DNA of 64,000 bases from Chloroflexota bacterium (GTDB lineage: Bacteria; Chloroflexota; Anaerolineae; Anaerolineales; VGOW01): positions 1 to 64,000 of the forward strand of contig VGOW01000005.1 of assembly GCA_016875735.1 (NCBI GenBank), read 5' to 3'. This document shows positions 10,574 to 15,326 of the stretch, piece after piece. The notes under the pieces are model-generated. The model saw nothing but the letters and a program-made list of their open reading frames with translations, searched no databases and was not told the DNA's origin. Positions within the stretch are counted from its first letter, which is position 1; each line of letters starts with the position of its first letter. Position numbers and translations under genes: made by a program.

Positions 10574-11115
10574 AAACAGAGAAGCGTGTTGCCGTATTTG
10601 CGCTGATCGATCAGCGTGAGGCGGGTTAACGGCAGTTCGGCGTGTTCTCGCGGATCGATTTGGACGATGGCCCAGCCATCGGGGTTCAGCCATTCGGGCT
10701 GAGAGTCGATCAACGTCAGGCTTTTCGCCCACAACGATTGATATTGCGGCGGGGCGATGTAAATGTAATCGAAGCCGGACTCGGGCTTGGCTTTGAGATA
10801 TGCCAGCGCGTCGCCGCGAACGACCTGCGCCCGCTGGCCGAGACCGGTGATTTCAAGATTGGTTTGAATCGTTTTGATCGCCAATCGATCCGAGTCGATG
10901 AACACGACTCGCGCCGCGCCCCGACTGAGGGCCTCGATGCCCACACTGCCCGTGCCGCCGAAGAGATCCAACAACGCGGCGTTCAGGATCCCCACGCCGA
11001 TGATGTTGAAAGCAGACTCTTTCACCCGATCCATCACTGGGCGGGTGGAGTCGCCGGGCACCATTTTGAGTCGGCGGCCTTTGGCCGCGCCGCCAATGAC
11101 GCGGATGCCGGGCAT
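10552..11115 (-). CDS. rsmD: RsmD-type 16S rRNA guanine-N2 methyltransferase
   Basis: The 187-aa Rossmann methyltransferase shows MPGIRVIGGAAKGRRL at the N-terminus, RPVMDRVKESAFNIIG and the SAM-binding LLDLFGGTGSVGIEALSRGA. RsmD methylates G966 of 16S rRNA. The catalytic motif, normally DPPY, reads APPQY at residues 121-125, so the acidic/amide residue is replaced by Ala and a Gln is inserted. The ATG overlaps the stop of the UroD-like gene by one base on the same strand, so translation is coupled. If APPQY is inactive, the enzyme would differ in target or mechanism; I regard a lineage variant as more likely. Confidence 0.85.
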   Translation of the reverse strand: MPGIRVIGGAAKGRRLKMVPGDSTRPVMDRVKESAFNIIGVGILNAALLDLFGGTGSVGIEALSRGAARVVFIDSDRLAIKTIQTNLEITGLGQRAQVVRGDALAYLKAKPESGFDYIYIAPPQYQSLWAKSLTLIDSQPEWLNPDGWAIVQIDPREHAELPLTRLTLIDQRKYGNTLLCFYERPGE

Positions 11116-12089
11116 CAGCCGACTACGTTTCTCGCCGCCCGCAGGTTGGCCCGCGGGGCAGTGGTGGGGGTGACACAGCCGGTGCCCAAAATGAGTCCGC
11201 GCCCCCCGGTGGCATTCATCGCCTCGCGCGCTTCGGCTTCCACCGAGTCCGGAGTTCCGCGAACCATCGTCTCCCACTGACGCCAACCGCCGCACACTGC
11301 GCCGCCAAATTTCTTTTTCCCTTCGGCCAACGTCGGCGGCGTTTCGCGGTCGTGCCAGTTGATCACTTGCGCCGGATACTTGGCGACGAGATCGAACATC
11401 ACCGACTCGCCGTGCAGGTGAAGCGCGTTGAGCCACAGGCCGCGCGCGGCTTCGAGGATCTGCCGGTCGTGAGGTTCGCCGAACTCGCGGTATTCCACTT
11501 CGGAGAGGAAGCGCGTGCTGGCGAACTGCACGGCGTAAAAGATTCCGGCGATGCCGGCGCGCGCGGCGGCTTCCACGAAGCGGAGGGTTGTTTCGGTGAT
11601 GACGGCCAGCGCGACTTTGAGCTCGCCCGGGTGCAGACGAAGGTGCGTGAGCAAATGATCGCCGCCCACCAAATTTTTGGCTTGCGAGATCGGGCTGAAG
11701 ATCGTTTGGATGAACGGCGTGCCGTCGGGCAGGCCGTCGCGGATGAGTTCGAGCGCGCACAGTTGTTCGCCGAGTCCGCCCTGCCGCGGGTCGAGCGGTT
11801 TGAGAGCCAGCCAATCATCTGCGCGGCGGATGACGCGGCGCGTGTAATCGCGTGTGCCTTCCGGGTTGCCGCGCCATTCGTCCTCCACGCCCCAACCGCG
11901 AATGCAGAATGAGCTGGCCGGAGTGACTTTGACGAAGTCGAAATCGTAAAGGGATTGGAACTCGATTGTGGCCGCCGCCAGATCGGCCGGGCGCTGATCA
12001 TCGACGGGGAAGTGCCGCCACAGGGCCACCGGGGCGCGGTCACCGGCCTCGCCGTTGATTGCCGCTTGGAGTCGATCTCGTTTGTTCAT
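11115..12089 (-). CDS. Uroporphyrinogen decarboxylase superfamily protein
   Basis: The 324-aa sequence has the UroD/MtaA fold pattern: N-terminal RDRLQAAINGEAGDRAPVALW, then FIQTIFSPISQAKNL and a C-terminal GRGLILGTGCVTP. True HemE signatures are weak. Potential metal ligands are HLH at 224-226 and C305, comparable in place to the H-x-C...C zinc site of MtaA-type corrinoid methyltransferases but with His in place of the first Cys. It may act as a corrinoid-dependent methyltransferase or an uncharacterised decarboxylase. It is the first gene of an operon with rsmD. Confidence 0.75.
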   Translation of the reverse strand: MNKRDRLQAAINGEAGDRAPVALWRHFPVDDQRPADLAAATIEFQSLYDFDFVKVTPASSFCIRGWGVEDEWRGNPEGTRDYTRRVIRRADDWLALKPLDPRQGGLGEQLCALELIRDGLPDGTPFIQTIFSPISQAKNLVGGDHLLTHLRLHPGELKVALAVITETTLRFVEAAARAGIAGIFYAVQFASTRFLSEVEYREFGEPHDRQILEAARGLWLNALHLHGESVMFDLVAKYPAQVINWHDRETPPTLAEGKKKFGGAVCGGWRQWETMVRGTPDSVEAEAREAMNATGGRGLILGTGCVTPTTAPRANLRAARNVVG

Positions 12090-12240: not shown

Positions 12241-12280
12241 ACAAACCGCCTCCGGCCATTGACGGCCAGAGGCGGTTTGT
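12241..12280. other. Strong hairpin in the uroD-fur intergenic region
   Basis: ACAAACCGCCTC (12241-12252) pairs perfectly with GAGGCGGTTTGT (12269-12280), with a further inner GGCC stem. There is no T-run on either side and both flanking genes point away, so it is not a plain terminator. It overlaps the proposed -35 of fur. Confidence 0.6.
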
Positions 12281-12288
12281 TGTATGCT
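12259..12288 (+). promoter_or_regulatory. Possible sigma-70 promoter of the fur-cbiMQO operon
   Basis: TTGACG at 12259-12264 and TATGCT at 12283-12288 are 18 nt apart, and TG directly precedes the -10. The -10 lies 9 nt upstream of the Nur-like operator. Confidence 0.35.
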
Positions 12289-12296
12289 TTAGGCAG

Positions 12297-12312
12297 TTGC
12301 AAATAGTTGCAA
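12297..12312. promoter_or_regulatory. Nur-like operator TTGCAA-N4-TTGCAA
   Basis: TTGCAAATAGTTGCAA is two copies of the palindromic hexamer TTGCAA separated by 4 nt, 66 nt before the Fur-family ATG. The Streptomyces nickel regulator Nur binds TTGCAA-N5-TTGCAA, so this is a close match except for one spacer base. The downstream genes encode a Fur-family protein and a cobalt/nickel importer, so metal-dependent autoregulation is a natural inference. Confidence 0.5.
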
Positions 12313-12378
12313 TAATGCCGCATGGCAAGAAAGCGCCGCGCTCAACAGTGAAACGTTTTCCGGTCGAGATGGACAAAC

Positions 12379-12843
12379 ATGTCGGGAGCCAATGAACTGC
12401 GTTCGCGCGTTCGCGCGCACGGCAAGCGGGTGACGCCCCAACGCCAACTCGTCCTCGATGCCATTCGGGCGGCGGGCGGCCATGTGACGACCAATGAAAT
12501 TTTCACCCACGTATCGGCGGCCGCTTCCAGCGTCAACCGGACGACGGTGTATCGCAATTTGGATTTTCTGTGCGAGATGCGGCTGGTGGTGGCAGCGCAG
12601 ATCGGCGGCAAAATGTATTACGAGATCGCCGGAGAGGAGCCGCATCATCACCTCGTGTGCCGCCACTGCGATTCGGTTGGCGAGATCAGCCATCGGACAG
12701 TGAAAGCCCTCTTTGATAAGATCGAACGCGAGCAGTCCTTTGTCGTAGATATGGATCACTTGGCGTTGTTTGGTTTGTGCGCCGAATGCCGCCATACGGT
12801 CAGCAAACCCAAACTCAGAACCCGGCGCAAGCGGGGCGGGTGA
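12379..12843 (+). CDS. Fur-family metal-responsive repressor
   Basis: The 154-aa protein has an N-terminal winged helix (KRVTPQRQLVLDAI, then TVYRNLDFLCE) and a dimerisation/metal domain. Cys pairs are C94/C97 (CRHC) and C134/C137 (CAEC), forming the structural zinc site; HHHLVC at 89-94 provides sensory-site histidines. It could be Fur, Zur or Nur. The neighbouring CbiMQO importer and the upstream TTGCAA palindrome favour nickel or cobalt sensing. However, the two CxxC pairs are more typical of Zur/Fur than of Streptomyces Nur. It is followed by cbiM after 20 nt. Confidence 0.9.
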   Translation: MSGANELRSRVRAHGKRVTPQRQLVLDAIRAAGGHVTTNEIFTHVSAAASSVNRTTVYRNLDFLCEMRLVVAAQIGGKMYYEIAGEEPHHHLVCRHCDSVGEISHRTVKALFDKIEREQSFVVDMDHLALFGLCAECRHTVSKPKLRTRRKRGG

Positions 12844-12863: not shown

Positions 12864-13826
12864 ATGAAACCCATCCTTCCTCTCTCTCCACCGCACTTGC
12901 ACATTCCCGATGGCTTTCTTTCCATCGGCGTCGCGCTGGTGGGATGGGCGTTGGCTATCGCAGTGGTGGGCTATGCACTACGGCAAACACGCGGCCAATT
13001 GGGCGACAGGCAAATCCCGTTGATGGGCGTGCTGGCCGCATTCATCTTCGCCGCGCAAGCCATCAACTTCCCGGTGGCCGGCGGCACGTCGGGGCATTTG
13101 CTCGGCGGCACGCTGGCGGCCGTTATCATGGGGCCATGGGCGGCGGCGCTCATCATGACCAGTGTGATCGGCGTTCAAGCGTTGGTGTTTCAAGACGGCG
13201 GTCTCGTGGCGTTGGGCTTCAACATTGTGAACATGGGCATTGTCACCGCGTTCACCGGACACCTCGTTTACAAATTCGTCAAGCGTCTGATGGGCGAAGG
13301 TCGTAACAGTTTGTTGATTGCTGGCGCAGTAGGCGCGTGGCTCTCGGTGATGGTGGGAGCGGCGGCTACCGCCGTTGAACTGGCGGCGTCGGGGACAACG
13401 CCTCTCGGCATTGCCCTGCCGGCGATGATGGGAGTTCATGCGTTGATCGGAATCGGCGAAGCGGCGATTACAGTGGGCGCATTGGCGTTCGTGTGGGCCG
13501 CTCGCCGCGATCTATTGAGCATTGGCGAGACGGCGCCCGCGCAGGCCGGAGCAGGTTGGGTGGCCGCCGGGCTGGGCATTGCGCTAGTCGTCGCCGTGTT
13601 TTCGTTTGCCGCCTCGCCCGACCCCGACGGATTGGAGCGTGTGGCCGCCGACAACGGCTTCATCACTGCCGCGCTCGATCCGATCTTCCGCGTGTTGCCG
13701 GATTACACCACTCCATTCATCGGCAACGAAATACTGTCGGGCACGATTGCTGTCGTCGTTGGCACGCTGGTTGTGTTTGCAGTGGCGTTCGCCGTTGCCC
13801 GGACGCAGCGCAAGGCCGTATCGTAA
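12864..13826 (+). CDS. cbiM: CbiM-type energy-coupling-factor substrate-binding permease with CbiN-like tail
   Basis: The 320-aa membrane protein is the substrate-specific component for cobalt or nickel uptake. HIPDGFLS near the N-terminus, INFPVAGGTSGHLLGG and GVQALVFQDGGLVALGFN are CbiM/NikM signatures. The C-terminal part (about 250-265, PDPDGLE) is a PDGLE domain, which replaces a separate CbiN. The family coordinates metal through Met1-His2. The ATG at 12864 would put 11 residues before the conserved LHIPDG; an in-frame TTG at 12897 would give exactly M-H-I-P-D-G, but without a visible ribosome-binding site. Confidence 0.93.
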   Translation: MKPILPLSPPHLHIPDGFLSIGVALVGWALAIAVVGYALRQTRGQLGDRQIPLMGVLAAFIFAAQAINFPVAGGTSGHLLGGTLAAVIMGPWAAALIMTSVIGVQALVFQDGGLVALGFNIVNMGIVTAFTGHLVYKFVKRLMGEGRNSLLIAGAVGAWLSVMVGAAATAVELAASGTTPLGIALPAMMGVHALIGIGEAAITVGALAFVWAARRDLLSIGETAPAQAGAGWVAAGLGIALVVAVFSFAASPDPDGLERVAADNGFITAALDPIFRVLPDYTTPFIGNEILSGTIAVVVGTLVVFAVAFAVARTQRKAVS

Positions 13827-13831
13827 TGTAA

Positions 13832-14611
13832 GTGCTTCATTTCCATTTCGCCGAGCAGGGGCGCGGCCACAGCCTCATCCACAATCTCGATCCGCGAATC
13901 AAGATCATCGGGGCGGTGTTGTTCATCGCCGCCTCGACGATCTTGCCCTCCGGGTCGTGGCCGTCGTACGCCCTCTTGTTCATCGCCACCCTTGCCGTCG
14001 CACGCTACGCGCAATTGGGGACACTGTTTGCATTCAAACGATCCTTCGTGGCTCTGCCGTTTGCGCTGGCGGCCATCACTTTGCCTTTCACCGTGCCCGG
14101 CCAGCCCATTGCGCAGTGGGGCGGCCTCACCCTCAGCGCCGAGGGCGCGATCCGGTTCATCAGCATCATCGTCAAATCGTGGGTCTCGGTGCAAATGGCG
14201 ATCCTGCTCACCGCCGTCACTCCCTTTCACGATTTGCTGTGGGCGATGCGTGAACTGCGAGTGCCGCGCCCGCTGGTGAGCATTGTCGGCTTCATGTATC
14301 GCTACCTCTTCGTGCTGGCCGACGAATCGACTCGGCTGATGCGAGCGCGCGCCGCGCGGGCAGGGCAGGGCGCGGGCAAAAGCGGCGGCAGTGTGCTGTG
14401 GCGCGGGCGCGTAGCCGGGGGGATGGTGGGCAATTTGATGCTGAGAGCCTTCGAGCGAAGCGAGCGCATCTACGACGCCATGGCCTCGCGTGGATTCAGC
14501 GGCGACCTCCTTTCAATTTCACCCCCGATCATCATCGATCGGGATCGCAACGCGCTCGTCGGCTGGGTCACGTTCATCGCCATGACTCTGTTGATCGCTT
14601 TTGTGTTTTGA
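13832..14611 (+). CDS. cbiQ: CbiQ-type energy-coupling-factor transmembrane protein
   Basis: The 259-aa T-component of the cobalt/nickel importer couples ATP hydrolysis to the CbiM subunit. It has about five membrane helices and the coupling motif seen as MRARAARAG and, further on, ASRGFSGD. The start is the GTG at 13832, 6 nt after the cbiM stop. Gene order cbiM-Q-O is the usual one for group I ECF transporters. Confidence 0.92.
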   Translation: MLHFHFAEQGRGHSLIHNLDPRIKIIGAVLFIAASTILPSGSWPSYALLFIATLAVARYAQLGTLFAFKRSFVALPFALAAITLPFTVPGQPIAQWGGLTLSAEGAIRFISIIVKSWVSVQMAILLTAVTPFHDLLWAMRELRVPRPLVSIVGFMYRYLFVLADESTRLMRARAARAGQGAGKSGGSVLWRGRVAGGMVGNLMLRAFERSERIYDAMASRGFSGDLLSISPPIIIDRDRNALVGWVTFIAMTLLIAFVF

Positions 14612-14612
14612 G

Positions 14613-15326
14613 ATGCATCACACGATTGAAGTTAACGACTTGCGATTCAAATATCCCGACGGGCACGAAGCCCTGCGCGGCGTGACGTTGAGTATTGCCC
14701 CCGGCGAAAAGGTGGCGCTGGTGGGGCCGAACGGCGCGGGCAAATCAACGCTGATGCTGCATCTCAACGGGATTCTGGAAACACAGCATGGCGAGGTGTG
14801 CTCGTGCGGGCAGCTGGTGAAACAAGAGACGCTGGGGAAGGTGCGCGCGGCGGTAGGGCTGGTGTTTCAAGACCCGGACGATCAACTGTTCTCGCCCACC
14901 GTGTTCGACGACGTGGCCTTCGGCCCACTGCACATGGGCATGCCCGAAAGCGATGTGCGGCAGAGGGTTCGTGAAGCGTTGGCCGCAGTGGATATGGCTG
15001 AAGCCATTGACCGGGTGTCGCACCACTTGAGCATGGGGCAGAAGAAACGCATCGCCATTGCCACCGTGCTTTCGATGTCGCCCGAAATCCTCGTGCTCGA
15101 CGAGCCATCGGCCGGCCTCGACCCCCGCGCCCGGCGCGGGCTGATCAACCTCCTCCGCCGTCTGCCGCAGACGATGCTCGTCTCCACGCACGACATGCGC
15201 ATGGTAGCCGAACTCTTCCCCCGCACAGTGATCATGGATTTGGGCCGGGTGGTGGCCGACGGCCCCACGCCCCAGATTCTGGCGGACACCGCTTTGCTCG
15301 AGGCGCACGGCCTCGAAGCCCCTTGA
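14613..15326 (+). CDS. cbiO: CbiO-type ABC ATPase of the cobalt/nickel importer
   Basis: The 237-aa ATPase shows Walker A GPNGAGKST, the Q-loop VFQDPDDQLF typical of ECF ATPases, signature LSMGQKKR and Walker B ILVLDEPSAGLD. It is a single ATPase, presumably forming a homodimer with CbiQ. The ATG at 14613 directly follows the cbiQ stop, so I prefer it to a TTG 12 nt further upstream. Confidence 0.94.
   Translation: MHHTIEVNDLRFKYPDGHEALRGVTLSIAPGEKVALVGPNGAGKSTLMLHLNGILETQHGEVCSCGQLVKQETLGKVRAAVGLVFQDPDDQLFSPTVFDDVAFGPLHMGMPESDVRQRVREALAAVDMAEAIDRVSHHLSMGQKKRIAIATVLSMSPEILVLDEPSAGLDPRARRGLINLLRRLPQTMLVSTHDMRMVAELFPRTVIMDLGRVVADGPTPQILADTALLEAHGLEAP

What the first reader, a model, noticed from the sequence alone, without database searches (positions are those of the whole stretch)
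12297..12312. Nur-like operator in front of a Fur-family gene and a cbiMQO importer
TTGCAA-N4-TTGCAA closely resembles the Streptomyces nickel regulator box (TTGCAA-N5-TTGCAA). It lies just downstream of a candidate promoter and upstream of a Fur-family regulator that is co-directional with a cobalt/nickel ECF transporter. This suggests an autoregulated nickel or cobalt uptake module outside the Actinobacteria.
Basis: partly seen in the sequence, partly recalled or inferred. Interest (0 to 1): 0.55.

Follow-up and report, generated by a model that had tools for sequence, protein, structure and literature searches.

The report
Fur-controlled nickel importer in Chloroflexota bacteria
The marked palindrome is very probably the switch site of a metal-sensing repressor that turns its own gene and a nickel (less likely cobalt) importer off when metal is plentiful; the same site recurs before the same genes across a large class of bacteria in which we found almost none of the usual nickel repressor.

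Summary
TTGCAA-N4-TTGCAA at 12297-12312 is the only exact TTGCAA-N(3-6)-TTGCAA in the 4.15 Mb genome. It lies 66 bp upstream of a Fur-family gene followed by cbiM-cbiQ-cbiO. In 116 genomes of the class, an exact TTGCRA-N4-TYGCAA precedes fur or cbiM in 46; other spacers occur in 0-5 genomes, shuffles give 0.06. Sixty-four sites define TTATTGCRA-N4-TYGCAATAA, some with a third half-site exactly 10 bp downstream; the window has one. The best-supported mechanism is a metal-corepressed Fur protein that autoregulates and represses an ECF importer. Nickel is favoured: no corrin-ring gene in 42 of 42 genomes, NiFe hydrogenase in 30 of 31 fur-cbi genomes, NikR in 1 of 298. A separate Zur-type protein, with Cys and a Zur-like box, sits beside zinc-transport genes in this genome. 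It is not shown to be Nur: the spacer is 4, not 5, and His70/His72 of Nur are absent. In Caldilineaceae and other Chloroflexota relatives the same operator precedes znu genes, so the box alone does not name the metal. No binding was tested.

The parts
12259..12288 (+). candidate sigma-70-type promoter TTGACG-N18-TATGCT
   Evidence: consensus scan, 9 of 12 matches, 0.3 expected; weak on its own
12297..12312 (+). operator dyad TTGCAA-N4-TTGCAA; by inference it covers the transcription start just after the -10
   Evidence: recurs with spacer 4 in 46 of 116 genomes
12313..12315 (+). TAA, right arm of the extended dyad (the left arm TTA is not kept in the window: CAG)
   Evidence: T 50, A 51, A 49 of 64 sites; sequence
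12323..12328 (+). TGGCAA, third half-site exactly 10 bp after the dyad (5 of 6 to TYGCAA)
   Evidence: 19 of 64 sites have a half-site of at least 5 of 6 at this offset; 6 at offset 0, and 0-2 at each of the other 32 offsets of 0-33
12379..12843 (+). Fur-family regulator, 154 aa; ligand candidates H35 E82 H89 H91 H127, four Cys (94, 97, 134, 137)
   Evidence: PF01475; best solved relative 3eyy = S. coelicolor Nur, 87 bits against 59 for the next; alignment
12864..13826 (+). CbiM/NikM S component fused to a PDGLE (CbiN/NikN-like) domain; start ATG 12864 or TTG 12897 (LHIPDGFL)
   Evidence: PF01891 and PF13190; closest solved chains 4m58/4m5b and 5x3x
13832..14611 (+). CbiQ T component
   Evidence: PF02361, TIGR02454 over its cut-off
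14613..15326 (+). CbiO ATPase (ATG 14613; TTG 14601 also possible)
   Evidence: PF00005, TIGR01166 over its cut-off

Best explanation
This is a self-regulated nickel-uptake operon. A homodimeric Fur-family repressor loaded with its corepressor metal, most likely Ni(II), binds the dyad TTGCAA-N4-TTGCAA that overlaps the start of transcription. A third half-site 10 bp downstream probably helps. Binding shuts off fur-cbiM-cbiQ-cbiO. When nickel is short the metal leaves, the repressor lets go, and the ECF importer is made to supply NiFe hydrogenases. Shown by sequence: the site, the operon, recurrence with fixed spacing, site and regulator travelling together, the separate Zur of the same genome, absence of a corrin-ring marker and near absence of NikR. 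Inferred: DNA binding, repression, autoregulation, and nickel as the metal.
For: Spacer-specific recurrence: exact TTGCRA-Nk-TYGCAA in 46 of 116 genomes for k=4, against 0,1,0,0,2,0,0,0,0,5 for k=0,1,2,3,5,6,7,8,9,10; shuffles mean 0.06, max 1. With at most 1 mismatch: 43 of 70 with fur upstream of cbiM, 4 of 5 with fur downstream, 17 of 41 with no fur seen next door. Linkage: 64 of 150 listed CbiM places have a same-strand Fur within 3-4 kb. Nickel: CbiC 0 of 42; NiFe hydrogenase in 30 of 31 fur-cbi genomes, including this one (E 2.5e-229), against 1 of 11 fur-znu genomes; class-wide 152 of 171 CbiM+ against 85 of 127 CbiM- genomes, Fisher p 4.8e-6, not corrected for kinship; NikR_C 1 of 298. 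Cobalamin riboswitches occur in 42 of 42 but lie elsewhere. Not zinc in this genome: a Zur-type paralog sits with znu genes; in the 30 best Zur-type loci znuA/znuB is adjacent in 27, this operator (at most 1 mismatch) in 0, a Zur-box-like TGAAAAT-like dyad in 16 of 30 against 0 of 64 around this operator. One G244 paralog with a perfect operator sits with a NicO-like gene (the Pfam match is below its cut-off).
Against: No binding, expression or transport data. 20 of 70 genomes with fur upstream of cbiM have no site better than 3 mismatches, so the box is not universal. The same operator precedes fur-znuABC/COG0523 in one Caldilineaceae genus, G050 and some other Chloroflexota. The conserved ligand set is alike in cbi-linked and znu-linked proteins, so sequence does not show the metal. 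Nur's His70/His72 are absent. Hydrogenases are common in the class anyway (237 of 298).
Confidence: 0.72

Rival explanations
1. The same module senses and imports cobalt rather than nickel.
For: CbiM/CbiQ/CbiO family names and models say cobalt; B12 riboswitches show B12 use in 42 of 42 genomes.
Against: CbiC, a corrin-ring step, is absent in 42 of 42 genomes, so cobalt for making B12 is not needed by that marker; no B12 riboswitch lies at these loci. One marker only was searched.
Confidence: 0.1
2. The regulator is a zinc sensor (Zur-like) and the ECF importer is a zinc importer.
For: Same operator and close relatives in front of znuABC and COG0523 genes in a Caldilineaceae genus, G050, and other Chloroflexota classes.
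Against: This genome has a separate Zur-type protein next to znu genes, with Zur-type Cys and box; in the tree the znu-linked proteins are mostly one nested clade; Zur-type hits of at least 140 bits occur in 12 of 31 fur-cbi genomes and 0 of 11 fur-znu genomes (listing).
Confidence: 0.1
3. An iron- or peroxide-type Fur/PerR that happens to sit beside the importer.
For: NCBIfam's nearest models are Fur and PerR, all far below their cut-offs; E82/H89/H91 with H35 is the general Fur-type metal site (recalled).
Against: The operator is a near-single site per genome, tied to metal importers of Ni/Co/Zn type and not to iron or peroxide genes in the places read.
Confidence: 0.05
4. The motif is chance.
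For: TTGCAA is itself a palindrome, and the genome holds other near matches.
Against: 46 of 116 against 0.06 expected, fixed spacer, near-fixed position.
Confidence: 0.01

Closest known systems
Nur of Streptomyces coelicolor (nickel-specific Fur homolog; 3eyy)
   Same: Closest solved relative. Half-sites TTGCAA; consensus tTGCaa-N5-ttGCAA (PMC3919588, passages read). Nickel-uptake context, corepressor logic.
   Different: Spacer 4, not 5. Ala/Gln (window) where Nur has His70/His72; 0 of 109 relatives have both. Nur controls sodF and nikABCDE (PMC7055735, passages); here an ECF importer and, in this genome, one perfect site. Nur falls among these proteins only on a long, unsure branch.
NikR regulons (E. 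coli nikABCDE; NikR control of NikMNQO predicted, PMC2667541, passages)
   Same: Nickel-corepressed control of nickel importers.
   Different: Unrelated protein fold (recalled); NikR_C found in 1 of 298 genomes of this class.
Zur regulons (PMC6103462, passages)
   Same: Fur-family, palindromic box, self-linked metal importer.
   Different: The class has its own Zur-type protein with Cys, TGAAAAT-like box and znu genes.

Membership tests
Fur superfamily (PF01475) | profile match with the conserved metal-ligand residues | tested here: met
   81.8 bits, cut-off 23.1; H35, E82, H89, H91, H127 and four Cys
Nur | box TTGCAA-N5-TTGCAA | tested here: not met
   spacer 4 in 46 genomes, spacer 5 in 2 of 116
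Nur | nickel site His70, His72, His126 (numbers recalled; a 3-His site in the PMC7055735 passage) | tested here: not met
   A, Q, H in the window; no relative has both His70 and His72
Nur | M-site His33, His86, His88, His90 (numbers recalled) | tested here: inconclusive
   33, 88, 90 kept; 86 is E in the window and H in 13 of 109 relatives; position 81 is E in 99 of 110 aligned rows
Nur | nickel-dependent DNA binding | not testable with these tools
   needs EMSA/ITC
Nik/CbiMQO ECF importer | S, T and A components together | tested here: met
   PF01891, PF02361, PF00005 in one operon
Nik/CbiMQO ECF importer | nickel rather than cobalt specificity | tested here: inconclusive
   context favours nickel; NCBIfam models named cobalt are all below cut-off for CbiM
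Zur | Cys-containing regulatory site, Zur box, znu linkage | tested here: not met
   met instead by the paralog at G000:C20
NikR | NikR_C domain in the genome | tested here: not met
   0 in this genome, 1 of 298 in the class

The most novel reading that the evidence does not exclude
One Fur lineage and one operator (TTGCRA-N4-TYGCAA) run nickel uptake across the class and were re-used, box unchanged, for zinc uptake in a lineage in which we find no CbiM, no hydrogenase and no strong Zur-type hit (the Caldilineaceae genus). The sensor would have changed its metal while keeping its DNA code, and many of the sister importers carry an N-terminal extension in front of the supposed metal-binding Met1-His2.
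Probability: 0.35. Interest if true: 0.65.

Novelty: new variant of a known kind. Interest (0 to 1): 0.5.

Why it matters
It gives a concrete, testable answer to how a large, mostly uncultured class with hydrogenases and almost no NikR could control nickel uptake, and supplies a box for finding such genes in metagenomes. If the znu-linked relatives sense zinc, the pair is a natural experiment on how a Fur protein changes metal without changing its DNA site. I found no report of it in the held papers by searches; subscription papers and RegPrecise itself were not searched.

Tried and rejected
Chance motif: rejected by spacer-specific recurrence. Riboswitch control: no Rfam match in the window; RF00174 matches in the relatives lie on other contigs or at least 28 kb away. 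A wider regulon in this genome: 27 places with at most one mismatch against 16 in the control, one perfect; I did not read the genes at the other 26. Extra perfect sites in 36 relatives (31 of 36 have one): 20 stretches were fetched (one of them was the own Zur locus, without a site); of the sites read some are plausible (second fur with a NicO-like gene, cbiM of G220, a znuA-like gene of G282) and many lie in or near unrelated genes. Metal-specific residues: no column separates cbi-linked from znu-linked proteins at the ligands.

Corrections on the way. One search used loci not turned to the gene's strand; one search replaces it. One search missed the fur gene in 15 of 61 neighbourhoods because of crude gene picking and in L082 took the Zur-type gene for the fur; one search replaces it. 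One search covered a wrong frame and found nothing; one search repeated it with the protein. Searches failed on a wrong frame; replace them. One search keeps one locus per genome, drops those with under 150 bp upstream, and estimates starts, so at least G062, G195, G220 and G050 have sites it does not count: its counts are lower bounds. It covers 116 genomes of 171 with CbiM (one search listed 150 places and truncated the rest). One search dropped proteins under 110 aa and duplicates (113 to 109). One search left out proteins without a good operator and four with other neighbours. The tree has few columns and many weak forks. No structure was predicted.

Full report
The site. TTGCAAATAGTTGCAA at 12297-12312 is real, alone of its kind in the window and the genome, and the only perfect TTGCRA-N4-TYGCAA in 4.15 Mb. 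It starts 9 bases after the end of a weak promoter's -10 and ends 66 bases before the ATG of a Fur-family gene at 12379. After fur come CbiM fused to PDGLE, CbiQ and CbiO, all co-directional and tightly spaced. Upstream, on the other strand, is a UroD/MtaA-like gene.

Recurrence. The window's genome belongs to a class of which 298 genomes were searched; 267 have a Fur-family match and 171 a CbiM. In 150 listed CbiM places, 64 have a same-strand Fur within 3-4 kb. In 116 genomes whose CbiM upstream region I held, exact TTGCRA-Nk-TYGCAA was found for k=4 in 46, k=5 in 2, k=1 in 1, k=10 in 5, and 0 for k=0, 2, 3, 6, 7, 8, 9. Markov-shuffled copies gave mean 0.06, largest 1, for k=4. Allowing one mismatch: 43 of 70 with fur upstream, 4 of 5 with fur downstream of cbiO (the site is then before cbiM), and 17 of 41 with no fur seen beside cbiM; the remaining 27, 1 and 24 have no such site. 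By the group codes printed, the 46 fall in about 20 families (counted by hand). The k=10 matches led to the next point.

Anatomy. 64 aligned sites give TTATTGCRA-N4-TYGCAATAA; positions 2 (T), 11 (T), 13 (G) and 14 (C) of the 16-base core are invariant. A third half-site of at least 5 of 6 lies exactly 10 bp after the dyad in 19 of 64. Offset 0 has 6, and each of the other 32 offsets from 0 to 33 has 0-2. The window has TGGCAA there, keeps the right arm TAA and lacks the left arm TTA. That a second dimer or a cooperative contact uses the third half is inference.

The regulator. Its best solved relative is S. coelicolor Nur (3eyy, 87 bits; next 59). Ligand candidates H35, E82, H89, H91 and H127 and four Cys are invariant in an 11-protein set and nearly so in the larger set: H33 in 104, E81 in 99, H88 in 106, H90 in 109 and H126 in 99 of 110 rows, Nur numbering, Nur row included. 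Nur's His70 and His72 are together in none of the 109 others. So it works like Nur in layout, but fails two features that define Nur (spacer, nickel site).

Which metal. (a) CbiC, for corrin-ring synthesis, is absent from 42 of 42 genomes (31 fur-cbi, 11 fur-znu), while the control rings in 7 of 14 known genomes. (b) NiFe hydrogenase is in 30 of 31 fur-cbi genomes, this one included, and 1 of 11 fur-znu genomes, nine of which are one genus. (c) Class-wide, 152 of 171 CbiM-bearing and 85 of 127 other genomes have it (Fisher p 4.8e-6, kinship ignored). (d) NikR_C is in 1 of 298. (e) Cobalamin riboswitches are in 42 of 42 (38 over the family's cut-off), but by the coordinates printed none is within 25 kb of the cbi loci. 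These favour nickel without proving it.

Zinc as a rival. It also stands before or beside znu-type genes in some Dehalococcoidia, Chloroflexia, Thermomicrobiales and unplaced Chloroflexi records (L258, L261, L262, L263, L267, L268, at most 1 mismatch) and before NicO-like genes (L270 with 1 mismatch, L266 with 2). No record from outside the Chloroflexota among those 80 loci had a spacer-4 match with at most 1 mismatch. Against a zinc reading for the window: its genome has a second Fur at G000:C20:38767-39195, which with one other falls outside the other 108 rows (support 99). It carries a Cys ahead of H-x-H in the Zur manner, is followed by ZnuA-, ABC- and ZnuB-like genes, and has TGACAATTGTTTTCA upstream. 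Among the 30 best loci of that type, znuA or znuB is next door in 27, this operator with at most 1 mismatch in 0, and a Zur-box-like dyad in 16, against 0 of 64 around this operator. Hits of at least 140 bits to that type are in 12 of the 31 fur-cbi and 0 of the 11 fur-znu genomes (listing, counted by hand). In the tree the znu-linked proteins form one nested, starred clade of 22 rows, with one NicO-linked row and one with other neighbours inside, plus G047 elsewhere. The simplest history is nickel first and znu later, in lineages without the Zur type; the tree is weak at many forks.

Mechanism. Ni-loaded dimer on a dyad at the transcription start, repression of fur-cbiMQO, relief on starvation: inferred from position and family behaviour (Nur and NikR repress uptake when metal-bound; PMC7055735, passages). 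Confidence 0.72 for nickel, about 0.85 for an autoregulating metal-uptake switch of some metal.

Literature. Passages were read of PMC3919588 (Nur box), PMC7055735 (Nur sites), PMC6103462 (Zur) and PMC2667541 (Ni/Co utilisation); An et al. 2009 was not held. Searches listed nothing on a nickel Fur in Chloroflexota.

Noticed in passing
window 12864-12899; CbiM orthologs in L034-L247: CbiM/NikM is expected to start Met-His-Ile-Pro, but in 36 of 111 class members the codon before HIPDG is not ATG. In 27 of these it is CTN or TTA, so a short N-terminal extension (such as MLYAPAPL-HIPDGFL) seems real. That would bury or replace the N-terminal amine thought (recalled) to bind the metal, unless it is processed.
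   Followed up: partly
window 12323-12328 and 19 of 64 sites: A third half-site at exactly +10 bp after the dyad.
   Followed up: partly
L073, L078 (G094, G204): fur, then two small proteins of no Pfam family, then cbiMQO; the second looks like NikL/NikK-type helpers of nickel importers (recalled).
   Followed up: no
L045-L072 (genus g132, Caldilineaceae): Several near-identical Fur paralogs per genome, most with their own operator and a different znu/COG0523 gene set; a His-rich ZnuA-like protein of about 790 aa among them.
   Followed up: partly
window 11115-12089 (-): Divergent UroD/MtaA-like methyltransferase gene, possibly corrinoid-linked; no sign that the operator serves it.
   Followed up: no
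G118:C100:8429-8454 and other places in G118: TTGCGAAGGTTTGCAA-like sites repeat, including two overlapping ones, in a genome with 10 matches against 2 in control; looks like a dispersed repeat.
   Followed up: no
G254:C446:3056 and 4283 (L139): Two perfect TTGCAAACGNTTGCAA sites flank a LacI-type regulator gene and lie before a binding-protein-like gene; probably a LacI-family operator that resembles this box.
   Followed up: no
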